64,000 bases of DNA from contig NZ_JARWAC010000005.1 of assembly GCF_029846175.1 (NCBI RefSeq), positions 1 through 64,000 of the forward strand, written 5' to 3'. The position numbers were made by a program, and so were the translations under genes. The notes under the pieces were generated by a model, which made no database searches, was not told the DNA's origin, and saw nothing but the letters and a program-made list of their open reading frames with translations. Each line of letters begins with the position of its first letter. Positions within the stretch are counted from its first letter, which is position 1. Below, one piece after another: positions 57,199 through 64,000 of the stretch. The DNA is from Sphaerisporangium sp. TRM90804. Its GTDB lineage: Bacteria > Actinomycetota > Actinomycetes > Streptosporangiales > Streptosporangiaceae.

Positions 57199-60087
57199 AT
57201 GACAAGGGGAGCGCATCGCGGGAACCTTCGATTTCAGATACTGGGGCCGCTCACGCTCACGGTAGACGGGTCCCCCGTCGACCTGAAGGGCGGGAAGGTC
57301 CAGACACTTTTGGCCCTCCTTCTCAGCAGTCCCAATATCGCCGTCCCGGACGACCAACTGGTCGACGGTCTCTGGCCGTCCGATCCGCCTCCCTCGACGG
57401 CGGCGAACCTCCGGGCTTACATCCGCACGCTGAGAGGAATACTCGGCGATCCCGAACGCATCATCCGGGCCGCCCGCGGTTATCTGCTGGAGGTCGAGCC
57501 CCACGAGGTGGACGCCCTGAGGTTCGGGCGGTTGACCTCCAGGAGTGAGCAGCTCCTCCGCACGAACGACACCGCGCTCGCCGCCGAGACCCTCCGTTCA
57601 GCACTCGACGAATGGACCGGAACCCCCTTCGCGGGGCTTCACGACTGCGCCATCCTCCGAACGGAGGCGGCGGTGCTCGAGGAGCAGCGGCTCACCGCCA
57701 CGAACCAGTGGATCGAGCTGCAGTTCGACCTCGGACGGCACACGGACATGATCCCGGTCCTGGTTCAGCTCGTCGAGGACTTCCCGCTGCGCGAGACGCT
57801 GCGCGCCCGGCTGATGGAGGCGCTCTACCGTTCCGGTCGCCAGGCGGAGGCCCTGGAGCTCTACCGGGGGACGCGCACGCTCTTCGTCGAGTCGCTCGGC
57901 ATCGAACCCGGCCCCCAGTTGCGCGACCTGGAGCAGGCGATCCTGCGTGGCGCCGTTCCCCTCAAGGGGACTCCCGTCAAGTCCGCGCCCACCCCGTGCA
58001 ACGTCCCCGCCGACACCCCCGACTTCACCGGGCGTTCGGAGGAGATCGCCACCATCGTCGACTGGCTGACCGCCGGCGGGCAGGGCAGCCCGTCGATCGT
58101 GGCCATCTCCGCACCCGGCGGCGTCGGCAAGACCACCCTCGCCATCCACCTGGCCCATCGGCTGCGCGGCGAGTTCCCCGACGGGCAGATCTACGTCCCG
58201 CTCAGGGGGGCCGAGGCGGAGCGACGCATCGCGCCGGGTGTCGCGCTGGCCGGCCTGCTGCGCACGCTCGGGGTGCCCGACGCCCTGCTTCCCGAGCACA
58301 TCGACGAGCGCAGTGCGATGCTCCGGGACGTCCTGTCAGAACGCCGGACTCTACTGGTCCTCGACGACGCCTCCGACGAGAGCCAGATCATGCCGCTCAT
58401 TCCCGGCACAGGCGGCTGCGCCGTCCTGGTGACGAGCCGGCACCGCATCACCGCCGTGCCCGGTATCCGCTCCCTTGAGCTGGAGTCCTTCACCGAAGAG
58501 CAGGCGCTCGACTTCCTCCGCCACATGGTGGGCGTCGACCGCATGAGGAACAGCACGCAGGACGGCGCCCGGCTGGTCAGCCTCTGCGGCCGTCATCCCC
58601 TCGCGCTGCGGGTCACCGGGGCCCGGCTGTCCGCCCGGCCGCACTGGCCGCTGGCCCGGATGGTCAGCCGGCTGGCGGACGAACACCGCCGGTTCGACGA
58701 GCTCGTGCACGGCCAGCTGGACGTCCGGGCGAACCTCATGCTCTCCTACAACGGCCTGGAGCCGCAGGCCAGGCTTCTGCTCATGTTGCTCGGCAGCCTG
58801 GAGGTCGTCGACCTGGAGGAGTGGCTGGCGTCGGCGCTCCTGGACCGCCCTCTGCGAGAGGCCCAGGACGTCCTGGACCAGCTGGCCCACAGCCATCTGA
58901 TCACCGTGACGGCCGCTCACGACCGCCTACCTCGCTACGGCCTGCACGATCTCGTCCGTATCTTCGCCCGTGAACGCGCACAGATCGAGGTCGCGCCGCC
59001 CGACCTGCGCGCGGCGGTGGAGCGAGCCCTCGGCGCGATGCTGACGGTGACCGAATACGCCCACACCCTGCTGGCCGGCCACGACCACCTCGTCGTCCAC
59101 AGCCGGGCCCCGCGCACGCCCGTCGACGACGGGCAGCTCAAGGAGATCGTGACCGATCCCGTCGCCTGGTGTGAGGCCGAGCTGCCCAACCTCTCCGGCG
59201 CCGTCCGTCAGGCCGCGCAGCAGGGCTTCGACGAGCTGTGCTGGGATCTCGCGGTGACCGCCGCGCCCCTCCTTGAGATCCGCCGGCACCACGACGAGTG
59301 GCAGCAGATGCACGAGATCGCCCTGGCCGCGGTCAGGGCCGCCGGCAACCACCGCGGGGAGGCCGTCCTCCTGGCCGAGCTCGGCGAACTGGACCTCCAC
59401 CGGCACGACTACACCGCGGCGGCCAGGTCCGCCGAGCGGGCGACCCAGATGTTCGTGGAGCTGGGTGACGGGCACGCTCAGGCCATCACCGAGCACAAGC
59501 TGGCCATCCTCGACCGCTTGGACGGGCGGCTTCACAAGGCCCTCTCCCGGGCCGAGCGCAGCGCGAGCACCTTGAGCGCGCTCGGTGACGTCGGCAACGG
59601 GGCGCTCGTCCTGCGCCAGATCGGGCAGATCCACATCCAGCTCGGCAACCTGGACGCGGCGCGGGACAAGCTCGAAACGGCCCTGAGCATGGCGGAGCAG
59701 GTGGGGGCGGCTCGCCTGGCCCAGCAGGTGAACTACAGGCTGGGCGAGCTCGACCTCGGATGCGGGAGGGCGACCGCCGCCGCCGTTCGGTTCGAGCAGG
59801 TGCGTGAGTTCTGCCAGAGCATCAACGACCGGGTGGGCGTGGCCTACAGCCTGTACGGGCTGGGCAGGGCTCTGGCCGCGCTGACCGAGATGGACGCCGC
59901 TCACCACAGCCTCATGCTCGCGTTGTCCCACGCGCGCGAGACCGGCGAGCGGGTCGTGGAAGCCGACGTGCTCCACCATCTCGGCCGGGTGGCCCTGAGC
60001 CGGGGTCGATCGGACGAGGCCTCCGAGGTGTTCCGCCTGGCGCACGCCATCTGTCAGGCCCTCGGCATCAAGCCGGCGTGGAGCTAG
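57199..60087 (+). CDS. SARP-type regulator with NB-ARC and TPR domains (AfsR-like)
   Basis: A 962-residue AfsR-type protein. The winged helix begins 'RFQILGPLTLTVDGSPVDLK' (11-100, with 'GDPERIIRAARGYLLEV'), the activation domain spans ~108-255 ('ALYRSGRQAEALELYRGTR'), NB-ARC carries the P-loop 'APGGVGKTT' (~305-313), 'RRTLLVLDDASDE' and 'VLVTSRHRI', then 'RYGLHDLVRIFARERAQ' and C-terminal TPRs. It probably activates the convergent operon of MetRS-like, ATP-grasp and MFS genes, or genes beyond the window. No TTA codon was seen. No ribosome site is visible, suggesting leaderless translation. Confidence 0.92.
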   Translation: MTRGAHRGNLRFQILGPLTLTVDGSPVDLKGGKVQTLLALLLSSPNIAVPDDQLVDGLWPSDPPPSTAANLRAYIRTLRGILGDPERIIRAARGYLLEVEPHEVDALRFGRLTSRSEQLLRTNDTALAAETLRSALDEWTGTPFAGLHDCAILRTEAAVLEEQRLTATNQWIELQFDLGRHTDMIPVLVQLVEDFPLRETLRARLMEALYRSGRQAEALELYRGTRTLFVESLGIEPGPQLRDLEQAILRGAVPLKGTPVKSAPTPCNVPADTPDFTGRSEEIATIVDWLTAGGQGSPSIVAISAPGGVGKTTLAIHLAHRLRGEFPDGQIYVPLRGAEAERRIAPGVALAGLLRTLGVPDALLPEHIDERSAMLRDVLSERRTLLVLDDASDESQIMPLIPGTGGCAVLVTSRHRITAVPGIRSLELESFTEEQALDFLRHMVGVDRMRNSTQDGARLVSLCGRHPLALRVTGARLSARPHWPLARMVSRLADEHRRFDELVHGQLDVRANLMLSYNGLEPQARLLLMLLGSLEVVDLEEWLASALLDRPLREAQDVLDQLAHSHLITVTAAHDRLPRYGLHDLVRIFARERAQIEVAPPDLRAAVERALGAMLTVTEYAHTLLAGHDHLVVHSRAPRTPVDDGQLKEIVTDPVAWCEAELPNLSGAVRQAAQQGFDELCWDLAVTAAPLLEIRRHHDEWQQMHEIALAAVRAAGNHRGEAVLLAELGELDLHRHDYTAAARSAERATQMFVELGDGHAQAITEHKLAILDRLDGRLHKALSRAERSASTLSALGDVGNGALVLRQIGQIHIQLGNLDAARDKLETALSMAEQVGAARLAQQVNYRLGELDLGCGRATAAAVRFEQVREFCQSINDRVGVAYSLYGLGRALAALTEMDAAHHSLMLALSHARETGERVVEADVLHHLGRVALSRGRSDEASEVFRLAHAICQALGIKPAWS

Positions 60088-60166: not shown

Positions 60167-61423
60167 TCAGCCGGGGGCAAGGGCGTCCTCCCGCTCGTCG
60201 CGAGCCAGCGTCCGCGTACCTCGGTCGGCGATGCTCACGACCACGGCGAGGACGATGACGACGGCGCTCAGCGTGAATACGAACGAGGCGTCGAACCGGG
60301 AGATGGCCGCGGCCGTCAGGGCGAGCCCCGCGGGCCTCAGGATGAAGGACCCCGCGTAGTCGAACGACGAGACCCGTGACAGCGACGAGTTGGGAATGTG
60401 CTGCTGCAGAGCCGTGTCCCACAGCGTGTTGGGGAAGCTGATCGCGACACCGGCCAGTAGCCCGCCCACGATCAGCAGAGGCGCCTCTGGCGCGGCGCCG
60501 AGCACCACGATCAGCGGGGTGGTGAGCAGCATCAGGACGCGCGCGGGCAGCAGGAGCAGGCGCGGCCGGTACCGCACCGCGAGCGCGCTGCCCAGAACCT
60601 CGCCGACGCCGAGGCTTGCGGCGACGGCTCCCCACAGGAGGCCGCCCTTCTCGGAGCCGGACAGCGACACCGGGCCCAGCACGTGAAGCGAGGAGTAGAC
60701 GAAGTTGAAGACCATGAAGAAGACGATGCCCGTCCACACCCAGGATCGGCTCCGCACCTCGTGCCAGCCGCCCCGGAGCTCACGCAGGAAGTTGGCCTGC
60801 GTGTCGCCCCTGGGCCCGGCGGGGACCCGGAGCCGGCGAAGCAGCAGCAGGCTGCCCAGGAACGTGAACCCGTCCACGATGAGCGCCCAGCCGGCCCCCA
60901 CGAAGACCACCGCCAGCCCGGCGAGCATCGGCCCGGTGCTCACCGCCAGGTTCCGGGTGAACGACAGCAGCGCGTTGGCCTCCTGCACGAGTCGCGACGG
61001 CACGGTGTCGGCGACCAGTCCCACGGACGCGGGCACGAAGAGGGCGCTCGCGGCGCCGGCCATACCGTGAAGAACGATCATCGCCCACAAGGACGCGTGT
61101 CCCGACAGCAGGAGAAGGCCGAGGGTGATCTGGGAGGACATGCTGATCCCGTCCGAAAGGATCATGAGCCGCTTGCGCGGCAGCCGGTCGGCCCAGACCC
61201 CGCCGACCAGCATGAAGACGATCTGTGCCACCGAGTAGGACATGAGGACCAGGCCGAGGTCCACCGCGGAGCCCGTCGCGGTGAGCACGCCGAAGGCCAA
61301 GGCGACGGGGGTCAGGGCACTGCCGACCGTGGACAGCGCGTTGGCGAGGAACTGATCGCGGAACTGGGGGATTCTCACCAGTTCCGCGACGTTGCTCCAG
61401 TGAACGCCGGTCCTGTCCCTCAT
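60167..61423 (-). CDS. MFS exporter
   Basis: A 418-residue major facilitator with about 12 membrane helices; the A-motif is 'GGVWADRLPRKRLMILSDG'. It resembles the MFS_3/EntS-like exporters common in antibiotic clusters. Its ATG overlaps the stop of the ATP-grasp gene (ATGA), so the exporter is made with the ligase and probably carries its product out and gives self-resistance. It is convergent with the SARP gene. Confidence 0.88.
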   Translation of the reverse strand: MRDRTGVHWSNVAELVRIPQFRDQFLANALSTVGSALTPVALAFGVLTATGSAVDLGLVLMSYSVAQIVFMLVGGVWADRLPRKRLMILSDGISMSSQITLGLLLLSGHASLWAMIVLHGMAGAASALFVPASVGLVADTVPSRLVQEANALLSFTRNLAVSTGPMLAGLAVVFVGAGWALIVDGFTFLGSLLLLRRLRVPAGPRGDTQANFLRELRGGWHEVRSRSWVWTGIVFFMVFNFVYSSLHVLGPVSLSGSEKGGLLWGAVAASLGVGEVLGSALAVRYRPRLLLLPARVLMLLTTPLIVVLGAAPEAPLLIVGGLLAGVAISFPNTLWDTALQQHIPNSSLSRVSSFDYAGSFILRPAGLALTAAAISRFDASFVFTLSAVVIVLAVVVSIADRGTRTLARDEREDALAPG

Positions 61424-62646
61424 GGGGCTTCGAGTGGCGCGAACTCGACCACGTACTCGTCCATGACCCTCCGGGCCGCGGCGCGGACGCTCCGCTCGTC
61501 CGGCCCGGTGAGCCTGAACCGCCCGGGGACGTGGAAGTAGCCCCCGGTCCCGTCGAACACCTCACCGGGCTCGGGCAGCACTTCGGCGTACACCTGGGGG
61601 ACCACCCCGGTCATGGCGGTGCGACGGACCACCCGGCCGGGAAGGTGACGAGGCTCCGGCATCACCACCCAGCCGGCCGAGGCGTCCCCGGAACGCGGCC
61701 GCGCCGACTGCAGCGGGATGCCGAGGACGGTGCGGAAGCTCTCCGCCATCAGGTCGACGCCGTGGAAGTCCCGATGGATGTACGGCACCTCAGCTCCGCC
61801 CGGGCGCATCCCCGCCTCCAGGAACACGAGCCCGCCGTCCGGCCGGCGGATGATCTCGACGTGAAAGCAGCCGGTCACGAGCCCCAGGGCCTTGACACAG
61901 GTGATCGCCAGCTCGGAGATCTGCTCGCGGAGCGGGCCGGCGTCGAGTGAGGCGGAACCGAGCGGCTTGCCCCGGAGGAAGTCCAGGGGCGTGTTGACAT
62001 AACCCGAGACGCTCAGGAAGTGCCGCCGCCCTTCGGAGAGGACTCCGTCGGCATGGTAGATCTCCGTGGAGACGAACTCCTCGCACTCGAACCGCGTGAG
62101 ATCCAGCCCTTGGACCGCGGCGGTGAGCTCTCGCTCGTCGCCGAGGATTCGCACGCCGACGGACCCCGCCTCGGCTCGCGGTTTGAGCACCAGCGGATAA
62201 CCGATCCGAGCGGAGATCTCCGCGAGCGGCGGGGAGGAGCCCAGTTCCATGAACCGGGGAATCGGAAGGTCCTGTTTGGCCAGGCGGTCCTTCATGACGA
62301 CCTTGTCCCTGAAGGCCCGCACGAGGTCGGCGCCCGGCCCCGGGCAGCCGAACTCCTCGCGAAGCAACGCCGCGGTGAGCACGTCGTGCTCGGAGAGCGC
62401 GGCGATCCCGTCGAAGGGGCCGTACCGTTCCGCGAGCTCCCGGGCCGGTGCGACCAGGGTCGCCGGTCGGAGGTCCGCGACGGTGGCGACCCTGCCCGGT
62501 TCGACCGGGCCCAGCGCCTTGACGCACCCGGGCGGGGTCAGGAACGACAGAGCGCAGTCGTGCCCCGCGCAGTACCGGAAGTACTCGGCGTCCTCGTCGT
62601 CGTACCGGTTGACGACCAGGTAGTGAGGGAGAGCCCGGCTCGGCAT
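61420..62646 (-). CDS. ATP-grasp ligase
   Basis: A 408-residue ATP-grasp enzyme. ATP-binding strands read 'IGYPLVLKPRAEAGSVGVRI' and 'FECEEFVS'; the Mg/catalytic region is 'FHVEIIRRPDGGLVFLEAGM' followed by 'RPGGAEVPY', with the conserved Glu and Arg. This matches the carboxylate-amine ligase group (L-amino-acid ligase or BacD-like), which activates a carboxylate as an acyl phosphate and joins it to an amine. Upstream (81 bases) is the MetRS-like gene and downstream the overlapping exporter. Together they suggest formation of a small amide or dipeptide-type natural product. The ATG at 62646 has 'aggacc' upstream. Confidence 0.88.
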   Translation of the reverse strand: MPSRALPHYLVVNRYDDEDAEYFRYCAGHDCALSFLTPPGCVKALGPVEPGRVATVADLRPATLVAPARELAERYGPFDGIAALSEHDVLTAALLREEFGCPGPGADLVRAFRDKVVMKDRLAKQDLPIPRFMELGSSPPLAEISARIGYPLVLKPRAEAGSVGVRILGDERELTAAVQGLDLTRFECEEFVSTEIYHADGVLSEGRRHFLSVSGYVNTPLDFLRGKPLGSASLDAGPLREQISELAITCVKALGLVTGCFHVEIIRRPDGGLVFLEAGMRPGGAEVPYIHRDFHGVDLMAESFRTVLGIPLQSARPRSGDASAGWVVMPEPRHLPGRVVRRTAMTGVVPQVYAEVLPEPGEVFDGTGGYFHVPGRFRLTGPDERSVRAAARRVMDEYVVEFAPLEAP

Positions 62647-62727
62647 GGTGGTCCTGTCGGTCGAGGTGGGTGGGATCGCGGCGGCCGCGGCGCGGGAGCG
62701 GTCACGGTGACTCCAGGCCGCGGGGTG

Positions 62728-64000
62728 TCAGGCCAGGGAGTGGCGCGAGGAGTCCGGCAGCAGCGGCGCCAGGTCGCCGAGCGTGATCGCCTCGAATCCC
62801 CAGGGCGCCCCGCCCTGTCGTGGCCGCGTACAGTCCAGGAAGGCGGCCAGGCGTGGTTCCCCGATCCCGCCGAGCTCCTTCCAGATCCGCAGGGAGAGGC
62901 CGGGCATGATCGGGAATCCGAGGACGCTCGTGCCCTTCAGCCACCAGTAGGCGCTCTGCTCCAGGTTCCCGGCGCTCCGCCACCAGAGGTCGAACGCCCT
63001 CACCGCCTCCGACGTCGACACGACCTGCGCGTCCAGGGCGGCGTTCTGCCGGTCGAGCAGCGCCTCCAGCGTCACCAGTCGCTCTTCGGTGACGGGCTCG
63101 GGAACGGAGGAGACGTCGAGTGAGCGGCGGGCCCTGAGCAGCAGCGGCGTCAGCGCGCCGGCCAGCCGGGTGTTGACGACGTCGACGAAGGACCGGGGGT
63201 CCATGCTCTCTCGCCGCTCCTCCAGCCGGGTCCCCGCGAGGAAGTACCGGACGGCGTCCACGTCGATGCGTGGCGACCCGGCGATGTCCGCGGCCCAGAT
63301 CGCGTGCTTCCTGCCGGTGGAGAACTTCTCGCCCTCCAGCAGGTAGAAGTCGTTGATCAGCGCCCGGTCGTAGGCCTTCATGTCCCCGTGCAGCAGCGAG
63401 GTGCCGACGATGCAGACGAGCGTGGGAATCACGTTGTCGATGCCGAGGCTGGTCACCGTGGTGACCCCCGAGTGCGGGTGGAAGGCGTTGACGCCGCTCC
63501 CGCTCATGTGCCCGTGCAGGGCGCCCGCCAGCCTGGCGAACATGAAGATCCCCGCATAGGGGAAGAGGGTCCGCGGCACGTCGGGTTCGGTCCGCTCCAG
63601 CGGGATCCCCCATGCTTCGGGAGCGCTCACCCGCACCATGCCGCCATCGCGGGTCAGGTGATGCCGCACCGTTTCCCGGTAACGTGACGGCACGCCCATC
63701 TCCACCATTCGCGCGCCGAGTTCCCCGGGGTCCGCCGGCTTCAGGAAGAGCGACGAGATCTCGCGCCATTCGAGCGGGCCCACCCCGCCGACGCCCCGGG
63801 CGTCGCGCAGGTTCTCCGGCTGGAAGTGCCCACCGCAGGCCTCACAGAAGTAGCTGCCCGTCTCCGCATCGCAGTCGGGGCAACGGCCCGCGAGCCAGGG
63901 GCCGACGGCGAAACGCCCCGCGGAACGGCTGTAGGGCACCCGCTCCCGGCGGGTGACCACCGCTCCCTTCTCCTTCAGCCGTCGAAGGCACCCGGCCACC
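62728..64000 (-). CDS. Methionyl-tRNA-synthetase-like class I enzyme, 5' end beyond window
   Basis: At least 423 residues; the N-terminus (with the HIGH motif, if present) lies past base 64000. The visible part begins in the connective region: 'CLRRLKEKGAVV', a zinc knuckle with Cys at visible positions 40, 43, 52 and 55 ('CPDC...CEAC'), 'EAWGIPLERTEPD' where MetRS has its W-G-I-P block, and 'LGIDNVIP' at the position of F-G-K-D-N. The KMSKS loop reads 'GEKFSTGRKHAIW': the second Lys and Ser are replaced by Thr and Gly. The helical C-terminal domain follows. It lacks the usual tRNA-binding tail. It is a paralogue rather than the housekeeping MetRS, and it heads the visible operon with ATP-grasp and MFS genes. 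Confidence 0.82.
   Translation of the reverse strand, partial: VAGCLRRLKEKGAVVTRRERVPYSRSAGRFAVGPWLAGRCPDCDAETGSYFCEACGGHFQPENLRDARGVGGVGPLEWREISSLFLKPADPGELGARMVEMGVPSRYRETVRHHLTRDGGMVRVSAPEAWGIPLERTEPDVPRTLFPYAGIFMFARLAGALHGHMSGSGVNAFHPHSGVTTVTSLGIDNVIPTLVCIVGTSLLHGDMKAYDRALINDFYLLEGEKFSTGRKHAIWAADIAGSPRIDVDAVRYFLAGTRLEERRESMDPRSFVDVVNTRLAGALTPLLLRARRSLDVSSVPEPVTEERLVTLEALLDRQNAALDAQVVSTSEAVRAFDLWWRSAGNLEQSAYWWLKGTSVLGFPIMPGLSLRIWKELGGIGEPRLAAFLDCTRPRQGGAPWGFEAITLGDLAPLLPDSSRHSLA

What the first reader, a model, noticed from the sequence alone, without database searches (positions are those of the whole stretch)
60167..64000. Candidate biosynthetic operon: MetRS-like enzyme + ATP-grasp ligase + MFS exporter next to an AfsR-like SARP
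A minus-strand unit encodes a class I aminoacyl-tRNA-synthetase-like protein, an ATP-grasp carboxylate-amine ligase and, by ATGA overlap, an exporter; a SARP-NB-ARC-TPR activator sits at the convergent end. tRNA-synthetase paralogues are known to supply or transfer amino acids in some antibiotic pathways, and ATP-grasp ligases make amide bonds. The combination suggests a small amide/peptide product made without NRPS modules. I do not know a characterised pathway with a MetRS-type paralogue in this exact set-up.
Basis: partly seen in the sequence, partly recalled or inferred. Interest (0 to 1): 0.85.

Follow-up and report, generated by a model that had tools for sequence, protein, structure and literature searches.

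The report
Split hydrazine-synthetase gene cluster
What looked like a spare tRNA-charging enzyme is most likely half of a two-protein machine that joins two nitrogen atoms, in a soil-bacterium gene cluster that probably makes a small nitrogen-nitrogen-bonded peptide; the machine is of a known type, but its set of partner genes seems undescribed.

Summary
On the same contig the minus-strand unit runs on to about base 70991: oxygenase fusion, AlaX-like protein, ATP-grasp 1, lysine/ornithine-type N-hydroxylase, small cupin, FAD oxidase, MetRS-like, ATP-grasp 2, exporter. The MetRS-like protein is not metG; a canonical metG sits beside a tatD-family gene on another contig. MetRS-like plus zinc cupin plus N-hydroxylase is the signature of split hydrazine synthetases (Spb40/PyrN/RHS1 family), which join an N-hydroxy amino acid to a second amino acid through an N-N bond. 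The cupin keeps all four RHS1 zinc ligands; the N-hydroxylase is 42% identical to that of the RHS1 cluster. The six-gene core is kept in 8 clusters from four genera. What I did not find in the papers searched is the company: an AlaX-like tRNA-editing protein and a GATase-like/clavaminate-synthase-like fusion, together in 6 of 8 clusters and apparently recruited separately in one. I propose a ligase-made hydrazine peptide with AlaX-based self-protection; the N-N core is well supported, the product moderately, the AlaX role a testable guess. No chemistry was seen.

The parts
57199..60087 (+). SARP-type regulator (BTAD, NB-ARC, TPR), AfsR-like; convergent to the operon
   Evidence: Pfam/NCBIfam; tblastn relatives beside 4 of the 7 other clusters
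60167..61423 (-). MFS exporter
   Evidence: Pfam MFS_1 6.6e-37; ATGA overlap with the ATP-grasp gene
61420..62646 (-). ATP-grasp 2 (AG2); nearest solved structure by sequence is an L-amino acid ligase (4wd3)
62728..64000 (-). MetRS-like protein (546 aa, gene reaches contig base 64368); proposed adenylating and ester-forming half of a split hydrazine synthetase. The rest of the operon lies past the window end on the same contig (C45, same numbering, minus strand): FAD oxidase 64368-65453, zinc cupin 65450-65785, N-monooxygenase 65782-67002, ATP-grasp 1 66999-68246, AlaX-like 68268-69155, GATase-like/oxygenase fusion 69198-70991; then housekeeping glyS 71093-72775
   Evidence: Pfam tRNA-synt_1g; H34, G36, H37, K348 and four zinc-knuckle cysteines invariant in 10 proteins; 94 bits against metG cut-off 336. 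Past the window: DAO 1.1e-29, Lys_Orn_oxgnase 6.9e-99, ATP-grasp_4, TauD; Cupin_2 2.8e-12 with D50, H52, E56, H90 as in RHS1; AlaX 2e1b profile hit 1.4e-8; glyS single copy

Best explanation
A SARP-controlled biosynthetic cluster, without an NRPS gene, built round a split hydrazine synthetase. Proposed route: the flavin monooxygenase N-hydroxylates the side-chain amine of an amino acid (lysine most likely). The MetRS-like protein activates a second amino acid with ATP and, without tRNA, passes it to the N-hydroxyl as an ester. The zinc cupin rearranges the ester so that an N-N bond forms. The FAD oxidase cleaves a C-N bond to free a hydrazino acid. Two ATP-grasp ligases join it in amide bonds to one or two amino acids, one perhaps hydroxylated by the 2-oxoglutarate oxygenase fusion; the MFS protein exports the product. 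The AlaX-like protein probably clears tRNA mischarged with a toxic amino-acid-like intermediate or product (self-protection). Shown by sequence: gene identities, catalytic residues, operon order and its conservation. Inferred: every substrate, the order of steps, the product, and the AlaX role (about 0.4 on its own).
For: Operon with overlapping genes NMO-cupin-DAO-MetRS-like. Cupin: all four zinc ligands of RHS1, invariant in 5 orthologues and of the pattern [D/H/E]-H-E-H in 9 of 9 cupins compared, RHS1 among them; best PDB profile hit is RHS1, 5uqp, 1.5e-14. [quoted passage not shown]). MetRS-like: class I motifs kept but far under the metG cut-off, with a canonical metG elsewhere. N-hydroxylase: keeps the Lys and Asn counterparts of SidA K107 and N293, which SsDesB lacks (PMC8009421 passages; mapping mine), and its binding-site stretches closely match the RHA1 enzyme. 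The six-gene core AG1-NMO-CUP-DAO-MetRS-AG2 is in 8 of 8 clusters of this clade. Of 32 plasmid records matched I inspected 5: all 5 have NMO and cupin within 3 kb of the MetRS-like gene, and 3 (Pantoea, RHA1, Burkholderia) also an ATP-grasp gene.
Against: No chemistry was seen. The only experimentally tested relative I could compare (RHA1 MetRS-like) is about 27% identical, and in the tree of 17 the cupin-linked MetRS-like proteins do not form one clade: the deep forks are unresolved (57/37) and the canonical and C16 proteins fall among them. The two best PDB hits of the MetRS-like profile, 9vq4 and 9l8v (about 1e-46, ahead of an archaeal-type MetRS, 1rqg, at 2e-29), are deposited as methionine-tRNA ligases; I did not see their titles. 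The substrate pocket cannot be read from my alignments. The counterpart of SidA N323 is not kept, though the RHA1 enzyme lacks it too. The AlaX-like protein scores 22 bits against the AlaX-M cut-off of 300. Both AlphaFold models were poor (mean pLDDT 52 and 50).
Confidence: 0.8

Rival explanations
1. The hydrazine synthetase works as above, but the AlaX-like protein is a biosynthetic catalyst (for example a zinc ester hydrolase or acyl-transfer enzyme acting on the unstable aminoacyl ester), not a tRNA editor.
For: It is encoded beside AG1 in 5 clusters and beside AG2 in one. The pathway has an ester intermediate, and AlaX enzymes cleave esters (general knowledge). Homology to true AlaX is weak.
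Against: G490 and G752 have the full six-gene core and no AlaX homologue in the genome at E 1e-10, so the core does not need it. Outside clusters, relatives stand beside a CynX/NimT-like MFS gene in 10 of 16 loci, which looks more like a transport/detoxification pair.
Confidence: 0.25
2. One reading: a MetRS paralogue that supplies or transfers amino acids, possibly on tRNA, to an ATP-grasp amide-forming pathway with no N-N bond.
For: Class I synthetase motifs and ATP-grasp genes are real.
Against: It leaves the co-operonic cupin with intact zinc ligands and the N-hydroxylase unexplained. PyrN, the studied family member, is tRNA-independent (PMC8664883 section 5 part 1).
Confidence: 0.06
3. 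An NRPS-independent hydroxamate siderophore cluster: N-hydroxylase plus ATP-dependent ligases.
For: Lysine/ornithine N-hydroxylase, ligases, and an exporter with a sub-threshold EntS match (90 bits, cut-off 324).
Against: No operon protein matched an IucA/IucC synthetase; the only acyltransferase-named matches were weak ones of the MFS protein to much longer models (34 and 27 bits, cut-offs 1221 and 1349).; the cupin was scanned against Pfam only and the NCBIfam lists of the two ATP-grasp proteins were capped at 25. MetRS-like, cupin and DAO stay unexplained.
Confidence: 0.04
4. The MetRS-like gene is a resistance copy of metG protecting against a MetRS inhibitor made by the cluster.
For: Clusters can carry resistant copies of their target (general knowledge).
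Against: The protein is far from metG (94 bits, cut-off 336) and it comes with a cupin in all 8 clusters of the clade.
Confidence: 0.03

Closest known systems
Split hydrazine synthetase of Rhodococcus jostii RHA1 (cupin RHS1, PDB 5uqp, + standalone MetRS-like protein)
   Same: Separate cupin and MetRS-like genes with an N-hydroxylase; same zinc-ligand set D-H-E-H; N-hydroxylase 42% identical; an ATP-grasp gene nearby
   Different: MetRS-like parts about 27% identical; no hit of the window's DAO, AlaX-like or oxygenase-fusion proteins in the 17 kb RHA1 locus
Fused cupin-MetRS hydrazine synthetases Spb40, Tri28, PyrN, AzsN (s56-p1, triacsin, pyrazomycin, azaserine)
   Same: N-hydroxylase, cupin, MetRS-like part and, for s56-p1, triacsin and azaserine, an FAD oxidase of the Spb39/Tri27/AzsM kind (PMC11705231 and PMC10445470 passages)
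   Different: Two proteins instead of one; no carrier protein, NRPS or PKS domain matched in the operon; two L-amino-acid-ligase-like enzymes, AlaX-like protein and oxygenase fusion instead. No Spb40, Tri28 or PyrN sequence was compared directly
Pantoea agglomerans plasmid cluster (NZ_CP134760.1): SidA-type monooxygenase, cupin, MetRS-like, FAD oxidoreductase, MFS, ATP-grasp
   Same: Same six functions in one run of genes
   Different: MetRS-like 25.5% identical; its FAD oxidoreductase was not hit by the window's DAO protein; one ATP-grasp; no AlaX-like or oxygenase-fusion hit; product not known to me
AlaX trans-editing proteins
   Same: Zinc motifs HxxxH and CxxxH, collinear weak match to AlaX 2e1b
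   Different: Far below the AlaX-M model cut-off; inside a biosynthetic operon

Membership tests
MetRS/cupin hydrazine synthetase | MetRS-like part with class I ATP-binding motifs | tested here: met
   H34, G36, H37 (HLGH) and K348 (KFSTG) invariant in the 10 proteins, canonical MetRS included
MetRS/cupin hydrazine synthetase | zinc cupin with [D/H]-H-E-H ligands, the Glu being invariant | tested here: met
   D50, H52, E56, H90; same set as RHS1
MetRS/cupin hydrazine synthetase | co-encoded side-chain N-hydroxylase | tested here: met
   contig 65782-67002, Lys_Orn_oxgnase 6.9e-99; amino-acid-type site residues K59 and N228
MetRS/cupin hydrazine synthetase | tRNA-independent, ATP-dependent N-N bond formation | not testable with these tools
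   needs an enzyme assay
MetRS/cupin hydrazine synthetase | MetRS-like part in one clade with a tested family member | tested here: inconclusive
   RHA1 protein used; deep forks unresolved. Spb40 and PyrN sequences were not at hand
canonical methionyl-tRNA synthetase (metG) | score over TIGR00398 cut-off (336 bits) | tested here: not met
   94.3 bits; the C13 copy scores 477.8
AlaX trans-editing protein | HxxxH and CxxxH zinc motifs | tested here: met
   HTxxH and CGGTH in all 5 aligned; also in the G567 protein
AlaX trans-editing protein (AlaX-M) | score over NF040865 cut-off (300 bits) | tested here: not met
   22.3 bits; hence 'AlaX-like' only
L-amino acid ligase (ATP-grasp) | closest solved kin among L-amino acid ligases | tested here: met
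   AG1 best 3vot 5.2e-31, AG2 best 4wd3 1.3e-20
L-amino acid ligase (ATP-grasp) | dipeptide-forming activity | not testable with these tools
   curated DdaF and BacD cut-offs not reached where listed
clavaminate synthase / VioC oxygenases | HxE...H iron ligands and an Arg for 2-oxoglutarate | tested here: met
   H417, E419, H552, R566 invariant in 5; the roles of these residues are recalled, from no call
clavaminate synthase Cs1 | score over NF043003 cut-off (450 bits) | tested here: not met
   241.7 bits
AfsR (SARP global regulator) | score over NF053617 cut-off (1430 bits) | tested here: not met
   501 bits; BTAD + NB-ARC + TPR architecture is present

The most novel reading that the evidence does not exclude
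A distinct, undescribed family of ligase-built hydrazine antimetabolites whose producers protect their translation with a dedicated AlaX-like trans-editing enzyme. The oxygenase fusion and the AlaX-like protein would form one functional pair (hydroxylated amino-acid analogue made, mischarged analogue cleared), recruited more than once to hydrazine-synthetase clusters. tRNA proofreading would then be a self-resistance mechanism for an N-N natural product.
Probability: 0.35. Interest if true: 0.72.

Novelty: new variant of a known kind. Interest (0 to 1): 0.52.

Why it matters
N-N bond-forming enzymes are few and sought after as biocatalysts. This places a compact, split hydrazine synthetase in a short pathway with no NRPS or PKS gene in the operon, so the route might be rebuilt from about nine genes. 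The frequent company of an AlaX-like protein suggests a mechanism (editing of tRNA as self-resistance) and hence a mode of action (amino-acid mimicry) that can be tested before the product is known.

Tried and rejected
Resistance-type glyS: the glycyl-tRNA synthetase gene beside the cluster is the only one found in the genome, so it is a housekeeping boundary. Siderophore, tRNA-donor and metG-copy readings: rejected for the reasons given under rivals. Diamine N-hydroxylase: the best solved-structure hit is 6xbb, the cadaverine enzyme SsDesB (identified from PMC8009421 passages), but the window protein keeps the Lys and Asn that SsDesB lacks.

Counting: by the first cluster-by-cluster look the oxygenase fusion was in 5 of 8. 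A whole-genome search then found the Sphaerisporangium album copy under 5 kb from its AlaX-like gene, on the other strand, making 6 of 8. The same search found a full-length copy in G752 on another contig (C13), which I did not count as part of the cluster. G321 (MetRS-like, 36% identical, no cupin hit in 20 kb) and L025 (38% over residues 13-89 only) were left out of the 8. The genome searches score only the first candidates of a loose look, so the numbers of genomes are lower bounds.

AlphaFold on 6- and 5-row alignments gave poor models. The MetRS model was not searched. The oxygenase-fusion model was searched whole; its GATase-like, ThuA-like and GH42 hits most likely reflect the better-modelled N-domain and are weak evidence. 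Substrate of the MetRS-like protein: no call settled it. Paper searches for AlaX-type self-resistance or for this cluster in the genera concerned listed nothing that I recognised as this system; there I saw only the listed titles and abstract openings, and only the best 20 of 513, 2 of 2 and 15 of 36 papers.
Full report
Observation. All four genes described are present at the stated places. The window is bases 1-64000 of a 186 kb contig (C45) of an 8.3 Mb genome. The minus-strand unit does not stop at 64000; on the same contig it continues to about 70991, just downstream of the only glycyl-tRNA synthetase gene found in the genome.

Anatomy, 5' to 3' on the minus strand, in contig coordinates that equal window coordinates up to 64000. 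Oxygenase fusion (70991-69198), AlaX-like (69155-68268), ATP-grasp 1 (68246-66999), N-monooxygenase (67002-65782), cupin (65785-65450), FAD oxidase (65453-64368), MetRS-like (64368-62728), ATP-grasp 2 (62646-61420), MFS (61423-60167). The junctions AG1/NMO, NMO/cupin, cupin/DAO, DAO/MetRS and AG2/MFS overlap by 1-4 bases. The cupin was missed by my first gene call because a longer wrong-frame ORF covers it. The oxygenase fusion may start at an ATG 33 bases further in, the first residue invariant.

Not metG. The MetRS-like protein scores 94 bits on the metG model (cut-off 336); the C13 gene scores 478 and lies next to a TatD-family gene. The genome has two further MetRS-like genes, on C3 and C16.

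The core is a split hydrazine synthetase. In this published family a MetRS-like part makes an ester between an amino acid and an N-hydroxy amino acid with ATP, and a zinc cupin rearranges the ester into an N-N bond; PyrN does this without tRNA, and the two parts may be separate proteins (PMC8664883: abstract, section 5 part 1 of 3, sections 10 and 12). Here the cupin has D50, H52, E56 and H90, the spacing and the residues of the RHS1 zinc site, and RHS1 is its best solved-structure relative by sequence. The RHA1 plasmid locus fetched carries that very cupin (the printed stretch is identical), and its N-hydroxylase is 42% identical to the window's, with closely similar residues in the four binding-site stretches compared. 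The Lys and Asn that in SidA hold the substrate, and that the diamine enzyme SsDesB lacks (PMC8009421 passages), are kept. The amino acid partner chosen by the MetRS-like protein is not known.

Against. The MetRS-like part is only about 27% identical to the tested RHA1 protein. In a tree of 17 the cupin-linked proteins are not one clade; the deep forks are unresolved and the canonical and C16 proteins fall among them. So membership rests on the gene partnership, the cupin site and the N-hydroxylase, not on the MetRS-like phylogeny. The best PDB hits of the MetRS-like profile are entries named methionine-tRNA ligase whose titles I did not see.

Conservation. Searches for the MetRS-like protein found it in 3 of 149 genomes, the window's own included (E 1e-80), 3 of 396 of the phylum (own, G490, G321; E 1e-60), 3 of 392 of the genus of G490 (G490, G567, G752; E 1e-100), and at 5 loci in named genomes, one only a short weak match. 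Eight clusters hold the six-gene core AG1-NMO-cupin-DAO-MetRS-AG2: the window, Microbispora triticiradicis, M. amethystogenes, Sphaerisporangium album, Streptosporangium violaceochromogenes, G490, G752 and G567. AG2 of St. violaceochromogenes is only 37% identical. SARP relatives lie beside 5 of the 8, the window's included; none was hit in G490 at 1e-5 or in G752 and G567 at 1e-20. An MFS gene was seen in 7 of 8; the candidate in G752 was not scanned. St. violaceochromogenes and G567 carry a third ATP-grasp gene, about half identical to AG1, between the fusion and an MFS gene.

Accessory pair. The AlaX-like gene and the oxygenase fusion are both in or next to the cluster in the same 6 of 8 and both missing from it in G490 and G752, where a beta-eliminating-lyase-family gene follows the MFS (in G752 presumed MFS) gene. 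These clusters are related, so 6 against 2 is not a count of independent events (Fisher 0.036 if they were). Two things suggest more than descent. The S. album AlaX-like protein falls in a well-supported branch with stand-alone chromosomal relatives, away from the other four in the tree (the G567 protein was not in that tree). The S. album oxygenase fusion is only 51% identical to the window's and sits, reversed, near an M20 peptidase and an AsnC-type regulator; a second copy on contig C4 of the window genome has neighbours that look the same by length and opening residues. In G567 the AlaX-like gene lies at the other end of the operon. Whole-genome searches of five cluster genomes found one AlaX homologue in each of three, each time the one in the cluster, and none in two. 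Of 11 genomes of the window's genus searched, the two with the cluster have an AlaX homologue and the nine without it do not.

What the AlaX-like protein may do. It keeps both zinc motifs and aligns collinearly, though weakly, with AlaX. Outside such clusters, relatives stand beside a CynX/NimT-like MFS gene in 10 of 16 loci (two of the ten scanned, 348 and 352 bits against a cut-off of 406). An editing domain paired with a transporter suggests defence against an amino-acid-like toxin; in the producer this would be self-protection. This is inference. The 20 papers listed (of 513) include none on AlaX-based self-resistance that I recognised; I did not read them.

Known versus new. Hydrazine synthetases with N-hydroxylase and DAO-type oxidase are known for s56-p1, triacsin and azaserine, and separate MetRS-like and cupin genes for albofungin and others (PMC11705231 passages and section 15 part 1 of 2; PMC10445470 passages). 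PMC13061610 and PMC13274452 (passages only) describe further such pathways. ATP-grasp genes near the core also occur in the Pantoea, RHA1 and Burkholderia loci, and azsJ of the azaserine cluster is an ATP-grasp gene thought dispensable. I found no description of the present combination in the searches, which cover open-licence papers only; subscription papers on the family are outside that library. Novelty is therefore a new variant of a known kind. The core claim is strong, the product claim moderate, the AlaX claim speculative but cheap to test.

Noticed in passing
G000:C3, locus L012:4800-9201 (+): A second split hydrazine-synthetase cluster in the same genome: N-hydroxylase, cupin (H-H-E-H), MetRS-like, then a clavaminate-synthase-like oxygenase, with an ATP-grasp gene about 4 kb further on.
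   Followed up: partly
G000:C16, locus L013:5851-7260 (-): A further MetRS-like protein of about 470 aa with a KFSTS motif but no cupin hit in the 13 kb locus, near Sir2-family and GNAT genes; role unknown.
   Followed up: partly
G000:C4:82732-84507 (locus L088:10730-12493): A second full-length GATase-like/oxygenase fusion (51% identical), near genes resembling the M20 peptidase and AsnC-type regulator that flank the S. album cluster. One search counts one TAG in the matched stretch; the ORF called is unbroken (587 aa).
   Followed up: partly
Loci L060-L075 (16 loci): Stand-alone AlaX-like genes, most in the window's own family, beside a CynX/NimT-like MFS gene in 10 of 16 loci: a possible two-gene resistance unit against amino-acid analogues.
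   Followed up: partly
L035:6357-13045 (Pantoea agglomerans plasmid, from onion): A plasmid typed as conjugative carries monooxygenase, cupin, MetRS-like, FAD oxidoreductase, MFS and ATP-grasp genes in a row: a possibly mobile cluster of similar logic.
   Followed up: no
window 62728-64000, NCBIfam model NF008863 (PRK11893.2-5): The protein's best family model is named 'methionine--tRNA ligase' (468 of 551 bits), so hydrazine-synthetase halves of this kind may be annotated as metG in databases.
   Followed up: no
L024:2716-3963 and L059:3713-4918: A third ATP-grasp gene (about 52-53% identical to AG1) in the St. violaceochromogenes and G567 clusters, absent from the window's, suggesting a longer product there.
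   Followed up: no
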